A stretch of DNA of 5,471 bases from the NCBI GenBank assembly GCA_013215905.1, contig JABSQI010000130.1, positions 1 to 5,471 of the forward strand. Reading direction: 5' to 3'. Below, piece by piece: positions 1 to 5,471 of this stretch. This stretch comes from Legionellales bacterium (GTDB taxonomy: Bacteria > Pseudomonadota > Gammaproteobacteria > PIVX01). The stretch's first letter is position 1; each line of letters starts with the position of its first letter. The position numbers and the translations under genes were made by a program. The notes below the pieces were generated by a model. It saw only the letters and a list, made by a program, of their open reading frames with translations. It searched no databases and was not told the origin of the DNA.

Positions 1-34
1 TTTCCTCAGAAGACTTTACTTTAAATTCTTTCAT
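1..34 (-). CDS. 5' end of a gene, probably major capsid protein (cut by window edge)
   Basis: An ATG at 34-32 opens a frame that runs off the window after 11 codons (MKEFKVKSSEE). Its A is shared with the TAA stop of the prohead protease gene (TAATG), a tight overlap that suggests translational coupling. In HK97-type head modules the gene after portal and protease is normally the major capsid protein, and a lysine/glutamate-rich N terminus is common for its delta region. The capsid identity is inferred from position only, because 11 residues are too few to recognise a family. Confidence 0.55.
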   Translation of the reverse strand, partial: MKEFKVKSSEE

Positions 35-915
35 TACTTATAATTTTTTGAAAGGTTAGTAATTATATTAATTGTTTTTGATTTGTCTTCTTCGGTATCT
101 TTATTAGATGGCTGATTCAAATCAGTATCTTTTTTAGATGGCTCGATTAATTTCAAATCGGTAATTATTTGCTTCATTTGCAATATCTCCATGTTGATTA
201 ATCCACGTTGATTTTTGCTTTCCGAGAGCGATTTAAGTTGTACGTTTAATTCATCTAATCTATCAATTAGATTACTTTTTATTTTTTCGTTTGATCTTTT
301 AGATTTACTACCTATTGTAGGAGTTAGTTCATTTGCCCCATAAGATACTACACTAATTTCAAATAATTCTATTTCTTTAACTATCCAAAAGAAACCAGCC
401 TCATCTGCCTTTTCAGGGTTTAATGCTAAAGGATAGAACTCATCCCACGCTTTACGCTCTGATTCATTTGTAGAATTTAAAACTGCTTTAACTATATTTA
501 CATATCTAAACCCTATTGAATGATTATCATATAACCCCTCTTGATAATTAATTAAATCATCGTTTCCTTTTGCTGTTGTTGGTATATGACTTTCGCAATA
601 AAGACAATCCATACCATCTATATTTCTTTCTTCAATTAAATCAAACCTACCTACTACATTCTTAGTATTTAACACGTGATCAGATTGATGTTTTATTTTT
701 GCAACAGCATTAGATTTTGGTCCTCTATCATTTATAGATTTAGAAGCACAACCTAATACTAACATATCTTGGTCGCTATCAATAAAGAAATATGTATTAG
801 CAACAAACTCAACAGTTCTTTTATCTGGATCAACCTGCTTTATAGAGGTTGTACCCTCAACAGTTTTAACACCAAAATGAGTAGCCATTTTTTGTTGTAG
901 TGTTTTATTCTTCAT
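34..915 (-). CDS. HK97-type prohead (capsid maturation) protease with coiled-coil C-terminal tail
   Basis: The 293-residue product is predicted to cleave the capsid delta domain and scaffold inside the procapsid. The protease core spans roughly residues 25-202. 'KIKHQSDH' at 73-80 supplies the candidate catalytic His (H80 favoured, H76 possible). 'NHSIGF' at 131-136 holds the nucleophile S133. 'EISVVSYGAN' at 186-195 is the conserved strand that usually follows the acidic residue (E183 or E186). This layout is typical of the U35/S78-like prohead proteases. Residues about 203-293 form a charged, helical, partly coiled-coil tail with a duplicated 10-residue unit. No separate scaffold gene fits before the next gene, so the tail may act as scaffold (inference). 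The start overlaps the portal gene by 11 bp; Met10 would give a non-overlapping start at 888 and cannot be excluded. There is no clear Shine-Dalgarno site. Confidence 0.9.
   Translation of the reverse strand: MKNKTLQQKMATHFGVKTVEGTTSIKQVDPDKRTVEFVANTYFFIDSDQDMLVLGCASKSINDRGPKSNAVAKIKHQSDHVLNTKNVVGRFDLIEERNIDGMDCLYCESHIPTTAKGNDDLINYQEGLYDNHSIGFRYVNIVKAVLNSTNESERKAWDEFYPLALNPEKADEAGFFWIVKEIELFEISVVSYGANELTPTIGSKSKRSNEKIKSNLIDRLDELNVQLKSLSESKNQRGLINMEILQMKQIITDLKLIEPSKKDTDLNQPSNKDTEEDKSKTINIITNLSKNYK
95..143 (-). repeat. Two-copy direct repeat, 30-bp period, inside the protease tail
   Basis: The 19-bp stretches at 95-113 and 125-143 differ at one base and sit 30 bp apart, in frame. They encode two copies of a ten-residue unit in the protease tail, EPSKKDTDLN followed by QPSNKDTEED (residues 258-277). 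The unit is hydrophilic and looks like a flexible linker. This is a small in-frame tandem duplication, probably from slippage. Confidence 0.8.
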
Positions 916-2167
916 TTGCTTGTATATTAGTTATAATTTTCGCAGTTTCTTCATCAAAATAATAATTGTCTATAAGTAGTTTTTGCTTGCCTTCTGGTGA
1001 TATTGGCATGTTTAATATTACATTAATACCATCCATGACAATCTTATCCTTTTCAGCTTCTAATTTTTTGTCATCTTGTAAAGCCTCTATACTAGATATA
1101 TCTGGTTCTATAAAATAGTTTGAATTATCTCTTTCATTCCATCCGGGTACGTAGAATTTATTAAAATGATCTATCTCACTATGTAGCGGAGGTAGTACAC
1201 CATTAATATAAAAGTCTTTTGTATCTTGTTTAGCATTATTGTATGATGCTCCTTTTGGATCGTTAAACATTCTGGACTTAACACCGTAAACAGAACATAA
1301 ATCTCTTAACTTAATTACACCGCTCTCTAGTATCTGTAAATCTGCTGGACTCATTGCAAACTTTATAAAATCAAAGTTGCCCGAAGTAACTTTTATAGAT
1401 CCGTAATTATCTCCCCCGCCTATTTTGTTTTTAAGTGCTTTATCTAGTTGCTTACCTTCTTCTGATGTAGTTGCCCTATCTCCCTTAGAAGATAATAAAC
1501 CTATTGCTCCTTTATTCTTTATTAAAGATGCATCAGCAGTTATAATCTCATTAGAAGCTACTAACGTTCTATAAGCAGCAGATAAAGGACTCATACCCAT
1601 TACTGCATTTTCTGCTCCCGGATCTGGATTAAACTTTTTTAAGTGCATCACCTCTTCAATATCTAAATTATAATCTGTGCCGCTATAATTATACTTATAT
1701 GAAGTGGCTTGTGGTCCAGTTATTAAGTTGGTAACTTTAGGAATAATATATTGAGGTGCTAAATTCCACCTTTCAGAAAAATGTTGAAAGCCAAAAGGCT
1801 TAACCCCGTATTGTATTTCATTACCTGTTGCTAATTGATAAACTAAGGATTGATAAGTAAAAGACTTATAAGTGTTTTCATTATTAGGATTATGTACAAA
1901 GTTGTAAAAATCCCCCTCTCTTACTATCTCTTCTTCTCCATCTCTTAATACATTTTTTATTATAACTGGTATATCTGCACCTGATGAAGCTATCCTATTT
2001 ATTATTGAATAAACATGGTTATTATTCAAATAACCCTCTTCTAAATACTTCTCTATTGATTTTTCGCCTAAGCCTATATTAGATAGTAACTTAATAAATG
2101 ATTTTTCGCCATTTACATTATGGGATTTACCAGTTAGGGCTTTAAACGCTTCTGTAAGTCTTGACAT
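905..2167 (-). CDS. HK97-family phage portal protein
   Basis: At 420 residues this has the usual length for the HK97-type portal family (Phage_portal). The dodecameric portal forms the DNA entry channel at one capsid vertex and docks the terminase. Family-like segments are the early helix 'NNNHVYSIINRIASSGADIP' (48-67), the 'EEVMHLKKFNPDP' strand before the wing (171-183), 'GMSPLSAAYRTLVASNEI' (191-208) starting the long helices, 'NKGAIGLL' (218-225), and 'LRDLCSVYGV' (287-296) followed by the glycine/asparagine stretch near 304-312. The C-terminal 60 residues are acidic and helical. The gene starts with ATG in a T/A-rich stretch without a Shine-Dalgarno site, 85 bp after the large terminase gene, and overlaps the protease gene by 11 bp. 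No truncation or frameshift is seen. Confidence 0.93.
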   Translation of the reverse strand: MSRLTEAFKALTGKSHNVNGEKSFIKLLSNIGLGEKSIEKYLEEGYLNNNHVYSIINRIASSGADIPVIIKNVLRDGEEEIVREGDFYNFVHNPNNENTYKSFTYQSLVYQLATGNEIQYGVKPFGFQHFSERWNLAPQYIIPKVTNLITGPQATSYKYNYSGTDYNLDIEEVMHLKKFNPDPGAENAVMGMSPLSAAYRTLVASNEIITADASLIKNKGAIGLLSSKGDRATTSEEGKQLDKALKNKIGGGDNYGSIKVTSGNFDFIKFAMSPADLQILESGVIKLRDLCSVYGVKSRMFNDPKGASYNNAKQDTKDFYINGVLPPLHSEIDHFNKFYVPGWNERDNSNYFIEPDISSIEALQDDKKLEAEKDKIVMDGINVILNMPISPEGKQKLLIDNYYFDEETAKIITNIQANEE

Positions 2168-2252
2168 TTAAAAAAATTAGTACAATATGACTTCATATCG
2201 TGCAACAAAATATGTTACTTTACAAAAATAAATAAAATTTTTTTAATATTTA
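2168..2252 (-). promoter_or_regulatory. Intergenic leader before portal: candidate promoter and small palindrome
   Basis: This 85-bp, very AT-rich gap is the only sizeable break within the packaging/head gene run. On the minus strand it holds TATTTTTG (2230-2223), which fits the Bacteroidota -7 consensus TAnnTTTG, but no TTG lies about 19 bp upstream to serve as a -33 box. Downstream are GTAACATATTT (2218-2208), which recurs before the 152-aa gene, and a perfect palindrome ATATGA-CT-TCATAT (2185-2198), which could be an operator half-site pair or a weak hairpin. In such AT-rich DNA the -7 match alone has little weight. Confidence 0.3.
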
Positions 2253-3467
2253 CTAAGTTACCCAAAAATTATTATCTTCATTAAGTTCTTGATGTGCGTA
2301 TCTGATAGCATCAATGATGTGATTCCAATTATCAATAGGTGTATTAGATTTCTTATCATGAAAACAATAGTTATTTAATTCTCTATGGGTTTCAATATCC
2401 TGCTCCTCTGATATTATTTCTTTAACATACATTTTAGCTAATCCATTTTTAATACTGTCTGGACCTTTACGGCATTTAACAATATTAAAACCTTTAACTC
2501 TTATTTCATCTATCAATCTAGGTTCTGCTGAATCTGCTACTATTAAATCATTCTTAGTCACATTGCCATCTAAGAAGTTTATAATATCGCTTGTACTCAT
2601 TCCTTTTTTATACAGCTTTAACTTAGTATAAATCTTTTCTTTTGTTTGAGCCACTTTAACTAATGTAGTAGCATCATTAACATATCCAAAGTCCATACCG
2701 TAAATACTAGGTAATGAATCATCAAACTTTCCTATGCTCCAGTTTTCAAATACTACTCCCTCTGCTTTGTCTAGCCATCCGCCCTCTACAATATGTCTAT
2801 ACCTGTTAGGGCTTTTTAACTTCATATTGTTAAAACTCCTTAGAATATCGGGAGGAACAAACTCTAAACAATCTAAATAACTGGTATGAATATAACAGAC
2901 ATTATCTTTAATTCCGTTGTAACCTCCTTTAATTCCTTTTTCTTCAAAGAAGTTTTTGTATATCCAATGCTCTTTTGTTGTTGGATTGAGTATAAGTATT
3001 TTAATATTTGGCTCATCTGTATTTATATTCCCTCTTATTGATAGTGATACTTTTTCATAAGTATCAAAGTCTGGTATCTCTTCTGCTTCTTCTATGATTA
3101 AACAGCTAAAATCTTTTAATGATTTTAAAGATGCTGATTGAACCTTACTACCTGTTTTAAATCCTTTGAATATTATTTTTGATTCGTTTAGATTACAATC
3201 TATTCTATTTTGACTTATATTAAAATAGTTCTCATATTCTAATAGATTAATCTTTTCTTCTACTTCTGGAAAGGTACTATCTTTTGTTGATACACTTGTA
3301 TAACGTCCGTATAGTATTCTATGCTCTTTATGTATGCTTAGGTGAACTGATGCAGTACCAACTGCAAAAGACTTTTGAGAGAACCTACCACCAGTTATAA
3401 CATAAGTGTCTACTGATTCGGGTCTATCAAATAGGTGTTTGTATTTATTGCTTAGTTTAAGATCCAA
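2253..3467 (-). CDS. terL: Terminase large subunit (packaging ATPase and nuclease), TTG start
   Basis: The 404-residue packaging motor pumps DNA through the portal and cuts concatemers. ATPase motifs: Walker A GGRFSQKS (26-33), Walker B CLIIEEAEE (122-130), and the coupling motif IKILILNPTT (155-164). Nuclease motifs: first Asp in YGMDFGY (D259), second in VADSAEP (D312), third in NHIIDAIRYA (D386). The layout and the ADSAEP and NHxIDAIRY signatures suit the PBSX/Terminase_3-like group. The frame begins with TTG, placed directly after the TAG of the preceding lipoprotein gene and in the same frame. The first internal Met is residue 215, far beyond Walker A, and no ATG, GTG or other TTG precedes Walker A, so TTG is the only credible start. 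Translation probably depends on reinitiation after the upstream gene. The stop is TAG followed at once by TAA. Confidence 0.93.
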   Translation of the reverse strand: MDLKLSNKYKHLFDRPESVDTYVITGGRFSQKSFAVGTASVHLSIHKEHRILYGRYTSVSTKDSTFPEVEEKINLLEYENYFNISQNRIDCNLNESKIIFKGFKTGSKVQSASLKSLKDFSCLIIEEAEEIPDFDTYEKVSLSIRGNINTDEPNIKILILNPTTKEHWIYKNFFEEKGIKGGYNGIKDNVCYIHTSYLDCLEFVPPDILRSFNNMKLKSPNRYRHIVEGGWLDKAEGVVFENWSIGKFDDSLPSIYGMDFGYVNDATTLVKVAQTKEKIYTKLKLYKKGMSTSDIINFLDGNVTKNDLIVADSAEPRLIDEIRVKGFNIVKCRKGPDSIKNGLAKMYVKEIISEEQDIETHRELNNYCFHDKKSNTPIDNWNHIIDAIRYAHQELNEDNNFWVT

Positions 3468-3914
3468 CTAATGCTTTATAAACTCTTTAACTTGGAATGT
3501 ATCTATTAAGCCTATTCCATCTACTTCATAGTGATATATCATTAGTGTAGTGTCTGATGTTAAAACGCCCTTAAAACTTTGTTGTATAGGATTAAACGAA
3601 TCATTAAAGTAATTACTATCTACTATCGCACTAGAACCATTTAACAGTTGGTTAAAAGTTCCATTTGAATAATAAGCATTTAAACTGACAGATAGATGTG
3701 TACTAGTTTGACCTGATAATATAAATCTACGGTGTTGCGTTTCTCCTGTCATGTCGTTTATTACCCAATTATAACAATCCCAATTACCATTAAAATCATA
3801 GGTAGCCATAGTTTGAGATGGTGTAGTATTAGAGTTGCTTAGTTTTGGCTGTGGTGTTTCTTGCTTTGTACATGACAAAGTTAAAACGCTTAGTATAATA
3901 ATTAGTTTCTTCAT
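3468..3914 (-). CDS. Predicted lipoprotein encoded between the terminase subunits
   Basis: The 148-residue product has a short type II signal peptide: Lys2-Lys3, a hydrophobic core IIILSVLTL, then SC with the lipidated Cys at residue 15. The next residues, TKQE, loosely resemble the K/acidic lipoprotein surface-export signals known from Bacteroidota. A Ser/Thr/Pro/Asn linker (20-35) leads to a domain from about residue 38, starting 'YDFNGNWDCYNW', with alternating hydrophobic strands. This recalls small lipocalin-like Bacteroidota lipoproteins, but I do not recognise a named family. The start overlaps the small terminase stop by four bases (ATGA), and its TAG abuts the large terminase TTG, so it is fully embedded in the packaging operon. 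A role at the cell envelope, such as superinfection exclusion or another lysogenic-conversion effect, is a guess. Met36 could be an internal start giving a cytoplasmic form, with no specific support. Confidence 0.85.
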   Translation of the reverse strand: MKKLIIILSVLTLSCTKQETPQPKLSNSNTTPSQTMATYDFNGNWDCYNWVINDMTGETQHRRFILSGQTSTHLSVSLNAYYSNGTFNQLLNGSSAIVDSNYFNDSFNPIQQSFKGVLTSDTTLMIYHYEVDGIGLIDTFQVKEFIKH

Positions 3915-4171
3915 GCTTCTGTGAATATTATTTTAGGAATATTTAATTGTATATCTTGGTTGCTGTTTAAATCTAATTTATCTGTTGGCTTTCCTAGTAC
4001 GTAGTGCATTAATAGTTCAATAGATTTCATATTACCTTTACGTGCTTGGTCTGCACAAAGTTTAATAATTTCTTTTTTAGGTATCTCTGCAGTTATTAGT
4101 TCAATCTTTTCTTCTTCTGTTGATTTAGATTTTCTTCCTGCTCCTTTTCTTGCTCCACCATGTTTAGTCAT
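3911..4171 (-). CDS. terS: Terminase small subunit (DNA recognition)
   Basis: This is an 86-residue protein with the N-terminal basic motif GGARKGAGRK (5-14), common at the start of small terminase and related phage DNA-binding proteins. A helical segment follows, ending in 'MKSIELLMHYVLGKPTDKLD' (48-67), where 'LLxxYVLGKPxxK' is a recognisable small-terminase signature. The C-terminal tail 'IPKIIFTEA' may contact the large subunit. It would bind the packaging site and hand DNA to the large subunit. It is shorter than many small terminases (often well over 100 residues), but the frame looks intact. A 37-bp gap separates it from the upstream gene, and the next gene overlaps its TGA stop by ATGA. 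The position just before the large terminase, interrupted only by the lipoprotein gene, supports the call. Confidence 0.8.
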   Translation of the reverse strand: MTKHGGARKGAGRKSKSTEEEKIELITAEIPKKEIIKLCADQARKGNMKSIELLMHYVLGKPTDKLDLNSNQDIQLNIPKIIFTEA

Positions 4172-4196
4172 AACTTGAAATAATATGATTATTCAA

Positions 4197-4204
4197 CAAA
4201 TTTA
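4197..4204 (-). promoter_or_regulatory. Candidate Bacteroidota -7 promoter element before the small terminase
   Basis: TAAATTTG matches TAnnTTTG exactly and lies 25 bp upstream of the small terminase ATG, which would give a short leader. It is the only good match in the 37-bp gap. No TTG is seen at the expected -33 distance, and such matches arise by chance several times in DNA this AT-rich, so support is weak. Confidence 0.25.
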
Positions 4205-4208
4205 ATAA

Positions 4209-4667
4209 TTATTTTTTAATTGTTAGTTCTTCACCTGTTAAAGCGAAGTAAAGGTTTTGTAGTTGGTGGGTGTAATCGCAGTTTATTAGCTCAGTTGACT
4301 CAAAGTGCTTTTGATAAATTTGCCCATCTGATAGAATTTCTATATTGAAGTTGTTTAGGAAAAACCTTGACATTGTTCTATCTCTTAAACAAGGCACATC
4401 TTTTTCAATACATTCAAACCCAAACTTAACCAACCATTCTTCTGTTAGTGGTATTGGTTTAATCAATCCTAAACCTCCAATCAAAATGCCTGTAGTTTTT
4501 AAATGTGTTATACCTACACTATCTTCTTTAATCTGTCTTACAACGCTGATAGTTTTGCTTTCCCGTTCAGGATTATTGGGGAAACACCCATCAGTATTGT
4601 AAATAAAGTAGTTTCCTATTCTTAAATCTTTTGCTTCCATATCTATTCGTTTTAATTTGTGTAACAT
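4209..4667 (-). CDS. Conserved Bacteroidota phage-associated protein, LRIGN / HQLQNLYFALTGEEL type
   Basis: This 152-residue protein is of unknown function. From memory it matches a family that is very common in Bacteroidota phages and mobile regions, with 'KDLRIGNYF' near the start (13-21), 'IKPIPLTEEWLVKFGF' in the middle (69-84) and 'THQLQNLYFALTGEEL' at the end (133-148). No catalytic motif, signal peptide or membrane segment is visible. Two starts compete. ATG at 4667 has a good Shine-Dalgarno site, AAAGG, six bases upstream. Met10 at 4640 (MEAKDLRIGN) fits the usual start of the family but has no such site. The upstream site and the 4667 start codon lie in a predicted hairpin, listed separately, that could select between them. 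The gene precedes the small terminase by 37 bp. Confidence 0.82.
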   Translation of the reverse strand: MLHKLKRIDMEAKDLRIGNYFIYNTDGCFPNNPERESKTISVVRQIKEDSVGITHLKTTGILIGGLGLIKPIPLTEEWLVKFGFECIEKDVPCLRDRTMSRFFLNNFNIEILSDGQIYQKHFESTELINCDYTHQLQNLYFALTGEELTIKK

Positions 4668-4710
4668 AAATAACCTTTGTTTATAAGGGTTTAAGCAAAT
4701 ATGTTACACA
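4658..4710 (-). promoter_or_regulatory. Hairpin covering the ribosome binding site and first start codon of the 152-aa gene
   Basis: In the minus-strand transcript, TGTGTAACATA (4710-4700) is followed 31 bases later by its exact complement TATGTTACACA (4668-4658), an 11-bp perfect stem. The loop contains AACCCTT and AAAGGTT, which can add an inner stem of about six pairs with one bulge. The inner stem includes the AAAGG Shine-Dalgarno site (4678-4674), and the outer stem includes the ATG at 4667. If folded, both would be hidden, while the alternative start at 4640 stays free. The same repeat could instead be a pair of protein-binding operator sites. Confidence 0.5.
4674..4678 (-). promoter_or_regulatory. 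Shine-Dalgarno site AAAGG for the start at 4667
   Basis: AAAGG with a six-base spacer to ATG is the clearest Shine-Dalgarno site in the window; the other genes show none or only weak ones. It supports the 4667 start over 4640 for the 152-aa protein. Confidence 0.5.
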
Positions 4711-4729
4711 TTAGTGTTTTATATCCCGT

Positions 4730-4740
4730 TGTTAGCTGTT
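4730..4740 (-). repeat. Gene-end box A of the repeat family (AACAGCTAAC)
   Basis: Read on the minus strand, AACAGCTAACA starts one base after the stop of the 94-aa gene. It is an exact 11-bp inverted match to 4873-4883 inside that gene, and it resembles the boxes after the 76-aa gene (AACTGCTAAC) and after the partial gene (AATTGGTAAC). A convincing right-hand partner in the following gene was not found, so this element may be decayed or one-armed. Confidence 0.6.
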
Positions 4741-4741
4741 A

Positions 4742-5026
4742 TTAATTATTTTCTACAATCCATTTTTCACAATCATCTAAGCTACCTTCAAAATAAGTTT
4801 CACCCTCTTCGGGCTGTATAACCTCCCATATATTATTACCTAATTGTTCTATAGTGTATTTATCATCATAACAACAGCTAACACTATCTATAGTTAATGT
4901 TTGCCCTTTTTTAAGTGCCTCAATAACTTTTCCTTGTACTTGTCTTCCAATCTCTGATAATTCCTGATTTCTTAAATATGTTTCGACACTTTTTAAAGCA
5001 TCTATAATTTGTTCTATATCACTCAT
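4742..5026 (-). CDS. Unrecognised 94-residue acidic protein
   Basis: I do not recognise a family. Residues 1-40 (MSDIEQIIDALKSVETYLRN onward) look like one or two amphipathic helices. Residues 43-94 look like short strands followed by a closing helix: 'DKYTIEQLGNNIWEVIQP' (55-72), then 'YFEGSLDDCEKWIVENN' (78-94). The 'sL..CekWI..N' ending is common in small phage and mobile-region proteins. No signal peptide or membrane segment is present; CC at 51-52 has no visible partner motif. ATG at 5026 lacks a Shine-Dalgarno site. Residues 41-52 are encoded by the right arm of the inverted-repeat element at 4873-5081, and the TAA stop lies one base before another box of the same family. Unlike its neighbours, it therefore appears to be part of a repeat-bounded unit. 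Confidence 0.7.
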   Translation of the reverse strand: MSDIEQIIDALKSVETYLRNQELSEIGRQVQGKVIEALKKGQTLTIDSVSCCYDDKYTIEQLGNNIWEVIQPEEGETYFEGSLDDCEKWIVENN

Positions 5027-5081
5027 AATTTATCTGTATTTAGTCGGGCAAAAACTACCCATAGATTAAACGTTAGCAGTT
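4873..5081 (-). repeat. Imperfect inverted-repeat element B, attC-like
   Basis: Left arm 5081-5046 (minus) begins in the stop codon of the 76-aa gene; right arm 4906-4873 lies inside the 94-aa gene. Left arm compared with the complement of the right, in order: AACTGCTAAC / AACAGCTAAC, spacer GTTTA / ACT, ATCTAT / ATCTAT, a looser 7-base stretch with four matches, then TTTTGCCC / GTTTGCCC. That is 26 of 31 positions outside the spacer. About 139 bases lie between the arms and include the start of the 94-aa ORF. The box-spacer-box layout repeats in element C with different inner sequence, which points to conserved structure. Confidence 0.7.
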
Positions 5082-5310
5082 ATTTCACTAACTCAATAAA
5101 CCCTCCATTATCTTGTGTCAAGTATTCCTTACCATCAACCTCTAATATAGAGTATCTGTAACCGTTAACTATTCTATCTTCTTTTAGCTTTATTCTGTTA
5201 TTTGATTGTTCGTTAGTAATTGTACTTTCTTCATTTGTACAGCTCGATAAAACAACAACTGCTAACACTATGTAAATTGCATAGCTTATTTTTTTGGTTA
5301 AATTTTTCAT
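5080..5310 (-). CDS. Small predicted lipoprotein (76 aa)
   Basis: The N terminus has Lys2, Lys6 and Lys7, a hydrophobic core 'ISYAIYIVLAVVVL' (8-21), and the lipobox LSSC with lipidated Cys24, so export and lipidation are well supported. The mature part is only 53 residues: an acidic/polar start TNEEST, a linker, then 'YRYSILEVDGKEYLTQDNGG' (51-70), a short beta-rich segment resembling small Bacteroidota lipoproteins whose bodies contain 'I-VDG-EY'. I cannot assign a function; phage lipoproteins of this size often block superinfection, but that is only an analogy. ATG at 5310 has no clear Shine-Dalgarno site. Residues 9-18 of the signal peptide are encoded by the right arm of inverted-repeat element C, and the TAA stop runs into the left arm of element B. 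Confidence 0.8.
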   Translation of the reverse strand: MKNLTKKISYAIYIVLAVVVLSSCTNEESTITNEQSNNRIKLKEDRIVNGYRYSILEVDGKEYLTQDNGGFIELVK

Positions 5311-5392
5311 AATCTTTATCTGTTAATTTATTTATTATTAAATATTTTCTTTACTTATTCGCTACGTCAACTTACATCAAACGTTACCAATT
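5257..5392 (-). repeat. Imperfect inverted-repeat element C, attC-like
   Basis: Left arm 5392-5361 (minus) contains the stop of the partial upstream gene; right arm 5285-5257 lies in the signal-peptide region of the 76-aa lipoprotein gene. Left compared with the complement of the right: AATTGGTAAC / AACTGCTAAC, spacer GTTTG / ACT, ATGTAAGTTG / ATGTAAATTG, ACG / CA, TAGC / TAGC, which is 21 of 24 positions outside the spacers. The 5-versus-3 spacer next to TAAC is the same as in element B. About 75 bases separate the arms. The total of 136 bp is within the size range known for attC sites. Confidence 0.65.
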
Positions 5393-5471
5393 ATTTTGAT
5401 CCTCTGCAAACTCTTTAAATTCCTTTTCCTTAAACCAGTCATTCCCCCAGAAGTTTTTAGGGCATCCTTTT
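5384..5471 (-). CDS. 3' end of an unrecognised gene (cut by window edge)
   Basis: An open frame enters from the right edge and reads 28 codons to the TAA at 5386-5384. The end of the product includes FWGNDWFKEKEFKEFAED followed by QNNW. It is rich in aromatic and charged residues, as in a soluble C-terminal helix. The reading is credible because codon use and strand match the neighbours and the stop falls inside the gene-end box of element C, just as the next genes stop at similar boxes. No function can be given from this fragment. Confidence 0.55.
   Translation of the reverse strand, partial: KGCPKNFWGNDWFKEKEFKEFAEDQNNW

What the first reader, a model, noticed from the sequence alone, without database searches (positions are those of the whole stretch)
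4730..5392. Array of integron-cassette-like units with structured attC-like elements in a phage genome
Seen: three successive small genes end in related boxes (AATTGGTAAC, AACTGCTAAC, AACAGCTAAC) that touch or lie within a base of the stop codon. The first two boxes begin left arms that pair with right arms farther downstream (5392-5361 with 5285-5257; 5081-5046 with 4906-4873). Both pairs share the same plan: a 10-base box, an unpaired spacer GTTTR on the left against ACT on the right, then a second paired box whose sequence differs between elements. Known: integron attC sites conserve a palindromic fold with unpaired spacers rather than sequence, and sit at the 3' end of cassette ORFs. Inferred: this may be a cassette-like array next to the packaging genes. 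Against it, the core GTTAGCA departs from GTTRRRY, element B is long at 209 bp, and the ORF starts lie inside the loops.
Basis: partly seen in the sequence, partly recalled or inferred. Interest (0 to 1): 0.7.

Follow-up and report, generated by a model that had tools for sequence, protein, structure and literature searches.

The report
Integron-type gene cassettes in flavobacterial phages
A bacterial virus carries two small genes packed as swappable cassettes of the kind known from integrons, and related cultured viruses that have their own compact recombinase differ from each other by such cassettes at exact spots while the rest of their genomes stays nearly the same.

Summary
The window is a tailed phage (terminase, portal, protease) holding two attC-like sites and two cassettes (4732-5072, 5073-5383) beside an attI-like stretch. 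Each cassette's ends are 10/10 complements; 0 of 300 shuffles give such a chain. A 98.5% identical phage (L001) lacks about 728 bp, homology resuming exactly at G|TT. Other phages hold similar arrays.

Decisive support: Polaribacter phages Freya and Danklef, where 8 of 8 indel comparisons end at G|TT; Freya's lie upstream of a phage-encoded tyrosine recombinase. That enzyme and relatives lack the insert of classical integron integrases. Site polarity fits classical attC, but genes run backwards (25 of 28 phage units, 8 of 46 classical), explaining start codons inside attC loops.

Best reading: an integron-type array with reversed cassettes, moved by a recombinase acting on folded attC. The window phage's enzyme is unknown (none in L001's contig). 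Phage attC clusters are published (Qi 2023); none of my paper searches showed a compact phage integrase with reversed cassettes. Against: GTTRRRY unmatched; hairpin energies unremarkable; the L001 difference is G|TT on one side only.

The parts
4656..4731 (+). attI-like stretch, ending ..GTGTTTTATATCCCGTTG|TT (crossover after G4731); contains the inverted repeat TGTGTAACATA/TATGTTACACA
   Evidence: Homologous 77-bp copy stands beside a different cassette in L001 (5581-5657, 80%); short resemblance by eye to the backbone junctions of L001 near 7771 and L042 near 2338. Function inferred.
4732..5072 (+). Cassette 2 (starts TT, ends G); carries ORF2 (94 aa) reversed
   Evidence: Ends 4731-4740 and 4873-4882 are 10/10 complements
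4742..5026 (-). ORF2, 94 aa, start codon inside the attC loop; one database relative, 51 aa, 98% identical over 54% of the query
4873..5081 (+). attC-like site B (R'' 4873-4882, L'' from 4886, L' to 5066, R' 5072-5081), 209 nt
5073..5383 (+). Cassette 1 (starts TT, ends G); carries ORF1 (76 aa, lipoprotein-like by eye) reversed
   Evidence: Ends 5072-5081 and 5257-5266 are 10/10 complements; absent with its neighbour from L001, homology resuming at 5384
5080..5310 (-). ORF1, 76 aa, start codon inside the attC loop
5257..5392 (+). attC-like site A (R'' 5257-5266, R' 5383-5392), 136 nt; its right end TT.. belongs to the phage gene beyond
4209..4667 (-). Phage gene (phrog_10066) beside the attI-like stretch
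2253..3467 (-). Terminase large subunit (context)

Best explanation
4656-5383 is an integron-type array in a tailed phage whose nearest named relatives infect flavobacteria: an attI-like stretch followed by two gene cassettes, each ending in a site that folds like attC when single-stranded. A tyrosine recombinase recognises the folded strand by its paired boxes and unpaired spacers and exchanges strands between G and TT, so a circular cassette can be inserted at attI or excised. The cassette genes are reversed relative to the attC polarity: each starts inside the attC loop and stops at the attI-proximal end. Shown: the site layout, arms that pair with their own partners, complementary cassette ends, G|TT presence/absence between near-identical relatives, and in relatives an adjacent phage-encoded recombinase. 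Inferred: that exchange uses the folded single strand, and that for this phage the recombinase comes from the host or a co-infecting phage.
For: Own-end complementarity with shuffle control. Arms pair with their own partners: 32 sites from 8 sources, mean score 8.25 against 3.94 across sources, 0 of 10,000 permutations as good. L001 is 98.5% identical over window 1-4475, lacks 4656-5383 and resumes at 5384 = TT after G. Polaribacter phages Freya: the four isolates compared with Freya_2 match it at 99.99% over 43,874 bp; 7 of 7 Freya comparisons and 1 of 1 Danklef comparison have both ends in AAC = G|TT, six distinct segments (842, 902, 3198, 472, 307, 781 bp). The array is next to a 271-aa tyrosine recombinase in Freya and next to its relatives in 3 of 3 viral loci examined that hold upstream sequence (L126, L128, L130). 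Polarity set by class 1 aadA7 attC and 46 units beside classical IntI genes. Classical IntI above cut-off in 105 of 395 genomes of one phylum (that of G031), so an enzyme in trans is plausible in hosts.
Against: No PF00589 or Freya-like recombinase in L001's 41.6-kb contig, which may be incomplete. The window/L001 difference also removes the attI-like stretch; its left end is A|TT, not G|TT, with only 2 bp shared, so an ordinary deletion is not excluded for that pair. The boxes GTTAGCT, GTTAGCA, GTTACCA do not fit GTTRRRY. Hairpin energies are not better than shuffles for either element (z -0.79, -1.54). In the integrase-linked phages the base before GTT is C in only 11 of 28 units (classical 37 of 46), so the polarity match is looser there. 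For the Freya_10 array 3 of 300 shuffles reach the observed number of chained units. No experiment has been done on these sites.
Confidence: 0.86

Rival explanations
1. The units are inert remnants: cassettes captured once from a host integron by illegitimate recombination, no longer mobile in this phage.
For: No integrase in L001's contig. In Danklef the gene annotated integrase is a 43-aa piece, and the likeness to Freya's enzyme covers only residues 96-271. Qi 2023 proposes off-target or illegitimate recombination for phage CALINs (section 3.4 read).
Against: Cassette ends in the window are perfect complements, unlike drifting remnants; near-identical phages differ by whole units.
Confidence: 0.25
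2. The cassettes run the other way: crossover at the minus-strand G|TT (5266, 4882), so that each attC gives start codon and leader to the next gene.
For: L020 and L038 share attC core plus leader with different gene bodies; a 51-aa database protein equals the ORF2 leader up to the box and then ends.
Against: All 8 indel comparisons break at the other boxes; array ends in L001 and L042 carry only the R'' side next to shared backbone; site polarity agrees with classical attC in the opposite sense.
Confidence: 0.05
3. Ordinary transcription terminators or chance inverted repeats between small phage genes.
For: Fold energies near shuffles; element A's descriptor score is reached by shuffled hits; AT-rich sequence.
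Against: 0 of 300 shuffles give the chained ends; 0 of 10,000 permutations of arms; exact gain and loss in relatives.
Confidence: 0.02

Closest known systems
CALINs (clusters of attC sites lacking an integrase) in phages, Qi et al. 2023, PMC9892861 (abstract, passages and section 3.4 read)
   Same: attC-type sites and cassettes in phage genomes without an IntI gene; one of their phages, Polaribacter phage P12002L, shows several own-end units here, with the annotated genes on the opposite strand to the attC sense
   Different: Here gain and loss at G|TT between isolates is seen, with reversed genes, attI-like stretches, and in relatives a phage-encoded recombinase that is not IntI; the paper notes divergent attC directions in P12002L and suggests phage mosaicism
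Classical integrons with IntI
   Same: attI - cassette - attC order, attC polarity, G|TT, complementary cassette ends
   Different: Genes reversed relative to attC; linked phage recombinase lacks the IntI insert; boxes depart from GTTRRRY
Freya/Danklef phages, Bartlau et al. 2021, PMC8776804 (passages and section 18 read)
   Same: Carry this system; genome sizes 44.0-48.9 and 47.2-48.2 kb are listed there
   Different: The paper reads the integrase as potential for temperate life; integron and cassette have 0 occurrences in its main text
XerA/XerD-like tyrosine recombinases
   Same: Best NCBIfam match of the Freya enzyme is XerA (146 bits, cut-off 220); it aligns over residues 9-263 with 4a8e
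   Different: Stands beside a cassette array with an insertion point

Membership tests
Integron cassette array | attC sites: structure conserved, inner boxes differ but pair | tested here: met
   fold energies themselves not significant
Integron cassette array | Crossover at G|TT with whole cassettes gained or lost | tested here: met
   8 of 8 comparisons in Freya/Danklef; window/L001 met on one side only
Integron cassette array | R' box GTTRRRY | tested here: not met
   GTTAGCT, GTTAGCA, GTTACCA in the window
Integron cassette array | attI next to the array | tested here: inconclusive
   attI-like stretch by homology and position; clear insertion point in Freya
Classical integron (IntI) | IntI integrase with its specific insert | tested here: not met
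   No PF00589 match in L001's contig; insert absent in 7 of 7 Freya-type enzymes aligned (6 phage, 1 bacterial contig L131), present in 11 of 11 IntI aligned, one further IntI locus not read in frame
Classical integron (IntI) | Most cassette genes run with attC at their 3' end | tested here: not met
   Phage: 25 of 28 reversed, G001 14 of 14; classical: 8 of 46 reversed; tallies include some chance units
Phage CALIN (Qi 2023) | Two or more attC called by IntegronFinder/HattCI, no integrase nearby | not testable with these tools
   Those models are not on hand; no integrase in L001's contig
Phage CALIN (Qi 2023) | attC recombines with attI1 through IntI1 | not testable with these tools
   needs the bench assay

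The most novel reading that the evidence does not exclude
Bacteroidota phages carry a separate class of integron: a compact XerA-like integrase without the IntI domain, an attI at its 5' side, and cassettes whose genes are reversed and often start inside the attC hairpin. It exchanges small genes, some of them DNA methyltransferases, between phage lineages quickly enough that isolates of one phage species differ almost only there. The window phage is a member that has lost, or never had, its own enzyme.
Probability: 0.65. Interest if true: 0.9.

Novelty: new variant of a known kind. Interest (0 to 1): 0.8.

Why it matters
Phages are usually thought to change gene content by homologous or illegitimate exchange. 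Here is a site-specific, modular route with a visible record in cultured, nearly identical isolates. It makes direct tests possible: which enzyme handles attC when the IntI-specific domain is missing, how reversed cassettes are expressed, and whether phages and host integrons share one cassette pool. It also suggests that integrase-less attC clusters in Bacteroidota may be served by recombinases that IntI models miss.

Tried and rejected
ORF2 as a query: no relative in viral contigs, one 51-aa protein in the protein database. Rfam: nothing at E up to 1. TAACNGCTAACGTTTR in viral contigs gave 31 stretches, no more than chance would give by my rough estimate; of these I looked closely at L069, L071 and L074, and L071 showed no array. 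Window 4700-5400 against plasmids: two chance-like matches only. Searches for short classical-type sites in phages H101 and TJE1 gave no usable polarity control, so the aadA7 site and IntI loci were used instead. My note that the Danklef length differences lie beside the integrase was too wide: only the methylase cassette lies in the array. The minus-strand cassette model was considered first and rejected on the junctions. Ingeline's integrase neighbourhood was fetched but not analysed; L129 and G013 were not tested for arrays. Of the papers listed I opened only PMC9892861 and PMC8776804; two searches listed none.

Full report
What the window is. The large genes lie on the minus strand: prohead protease (34-915), portal (905-2167) and terminase large subunit (2253-3467), then small genes upstream. 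The terminase finds 58 viral loci; L001 (41.6-kb contig) is 98.5% identical over window 1-4475. The best-matching named phages are flavobacterial (Nonlabens phages, 42.7%). No host genome is held.

The two units. Read on the plus strand, the order is an attI-like stretch (to G4731), cassette 2 (4732-5072), cassette 1 (5073-5383), then phage sequence beginning TTACCAATT. Each cassette starts with TT and ends with G. Its first ten bases (counting the preceding G) and the R'' box of its own attC are 10/10 complements, as expected if a circular cassette once held one intact R box. Across each hairpin the match is only 9/10 and 8/10, because there the R' box comes from the neighbour. None of 300 dinucleotide shuffles gave such a chain. 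ORF1 and ORF2 share the stretch ATAGTGTTAGCNGTTGTT in different reading frames, so the likeness is of DNA, not protein.

Arrays in other phages. The same plan appears in L042, L038, L020, L074 and elsewhere in L001, and most richly in G001 (L069/L090/L091), a phage contig of 35,053 bases; its first 124 bases recur near its end. Its array runs from 112 to about 6350: 14 chained units, probably with a chance one among them, all 14 with genes reversed. Over 32 sites taken between consecutive unit ends in 8 sources (a k=8 search, so some are spurious), the arms pair with their own partner far better than with others (0 of 10,000 permutations as good), while their sequences differ. This is the integron hallmark of conserved structure.

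Presence and absence. L001 joins the base before the attI-like stretch directly to TTACCAATT; window 4656-5383 is missing. The right break is exactly G|TT; the left break is A|TT, with two shared bases. This fits exchange at a secondary site or a short-homology deletion, and alone it would not settle the matter. L001 and L042 share backbone beyond different cassettes; the BLAST match (84%) starts about 16 bases before the AAC, in T-rich sequence.

The natural experiment. An attC core from L038 matched isolated Polaribacter phages Freya_2 to Freya_10. Ten Freya isolates have seven genome lengths. I fetched five whole and the array parts of two more; Freya_3, 4 and 7 were not fetched. Four isolates match Freya_2 at 99.99% over its first 43,874 bp, rotated. 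All seven Freya comparisons differ by segments whose ends both lie in AAC on the gene strand, i.e. G|TT on the other; the attI-proximal end is about 47 bases upstream of the integrase start. The states are combinatorial: Freya_5 = A, Freya_8 = D, Freya_10 = A plus D, Freya_6 = A plus C, Freya_9 = Freya_10 without its attI-proximal 307 bp, Freya_1 = Freya_2 without 842 bp. In Danklef, isolates 5 and 3 differ by a 781-bp segment with an MT-A70 methylase, again ending at AAC. The comparisons are not all independent; there are six distinct segments, and the 307-bp one is part of D.

The recombinase. Freya's enzyme (271 aa) is a tyrosine recombinase (PF00589, 9e-27). Its best NCBIfam score is to XerA (146 bits, cut-off 220); TIGR02249 integron integrase scores 96.5 against a cut-off of 265. 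Of five viral loci with relatives at 36-39% identity, three were examined with upstream sequence and all three have an array there (L126 on a 276-kb contig, L128, L130); L127 has no upstream sequence and L129 was not tested. Among 24 records searched with the Freya enzyme, 3 matched. In an alignment the IntI-specific insert is present in 11 of 11 classical IntI sequences and absent in 7 of 7 Freya-type ones. A tree puts the phage enzymes and IntI in different groups, with weak support for the phage group as a whole (72/52) and a long Freya branch.

Polarity. In classical sites (aadA7; 46 units in 10 of 20 IntI loci taken from the list) the attC sense reads AAC then A or C (43 of 46), and C before GTT (37 of 46); 38 genes run forwards and 8 backwards. 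With the phage integrase set the same way, 25 of 28 genes run backwards (Freya_10, L126, L128, L130, some chance units included); there the base after AAC is A or C in 23 of 28 and before GTT C in 11 of 28, a looser fit. In G001 it is A after AAC in 12 of 14 and C before GTT in 12 of 14. The start codon of the window's ORFs lies in the attC loop; the start lies beyond the own-end box in 6 of 14 G001 units and 11 of 28 integrase-linked ones, against 5 of 46 classical ones.

Mechanism. The likeliest course, inferred from integrons in general (recalled): a strand of attC folds, the recombinase binds the box pairs and cuts between G and TT, and the cassette is joined to attI or excised. On both window sites the minus strand, the bottom strand of the attC sense, folds better than the plus strand, as expected; the energies do not exceed shuffles. 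The window phage's enzyme is not in L001's contig, though 105 of 395 genomes of the phylum of G031 hold a classical IntI.

Known and new. Phage-borne attC clusters, their use by IntI1 (5 of 6 tested) and a cluster in Polaribacter phage P12002L are published (PMC9892861). The Freya paper (PMC8776804) has no integron or cassette in its main text. The listings, seen as titles and abstract starts, showed nothing that I recognised as compact phage integrases with cassette arrays, and searches returned no paper; the library lacks most subscription papers and preprints.

Noticed in passing
Chained units: 71 in 20 loci against a shuffle mean of 17.3 (max 33); 9 of 20 loci exceed their own best of 20 shuffles; 10 phage-backbone loci gave 16. 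Possibly a second non-IntI integron class in bacterial chromosomes.
   Followed up: partly
Classical IntI above cut-off in 105 of 395 sampled genomes of the phylum of G031, and in 0 of 14 control genomes.
   Followed up: partly
P0001 and window 4873-5026: A 51-aa database protein equals the ORF2 leader (98%) and ends in the R box; its contig could not be reached, so a different junction, a stop or a contig end cannot be told apart.
   Followed up: no
L020 582-824 and L038 4154-4405: Similar attC core and leader peptide (M..DNKKTE..QC) with different gene bodies.
   Followed up: partly
L142-L146 (Danklef): Gene annotated integrase is only 43 aa long; Danklef_1 and 5 are annotated with an adenine methylase that 2, 3 and 4 lack.
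   Followed up: partly
L090:113-637 and L146:5012-5569: Cassette cargo includes a Dam-type and an MT-A70-type DNA methyltransferase; 7 other G001 array proteins scanned had no Pfam match.
   Followed up: partly
window 4476-4602 against L001 8933-8987: The phrog_10066 gene differs in an inner block while its ends are conserved.
   Followed up: no
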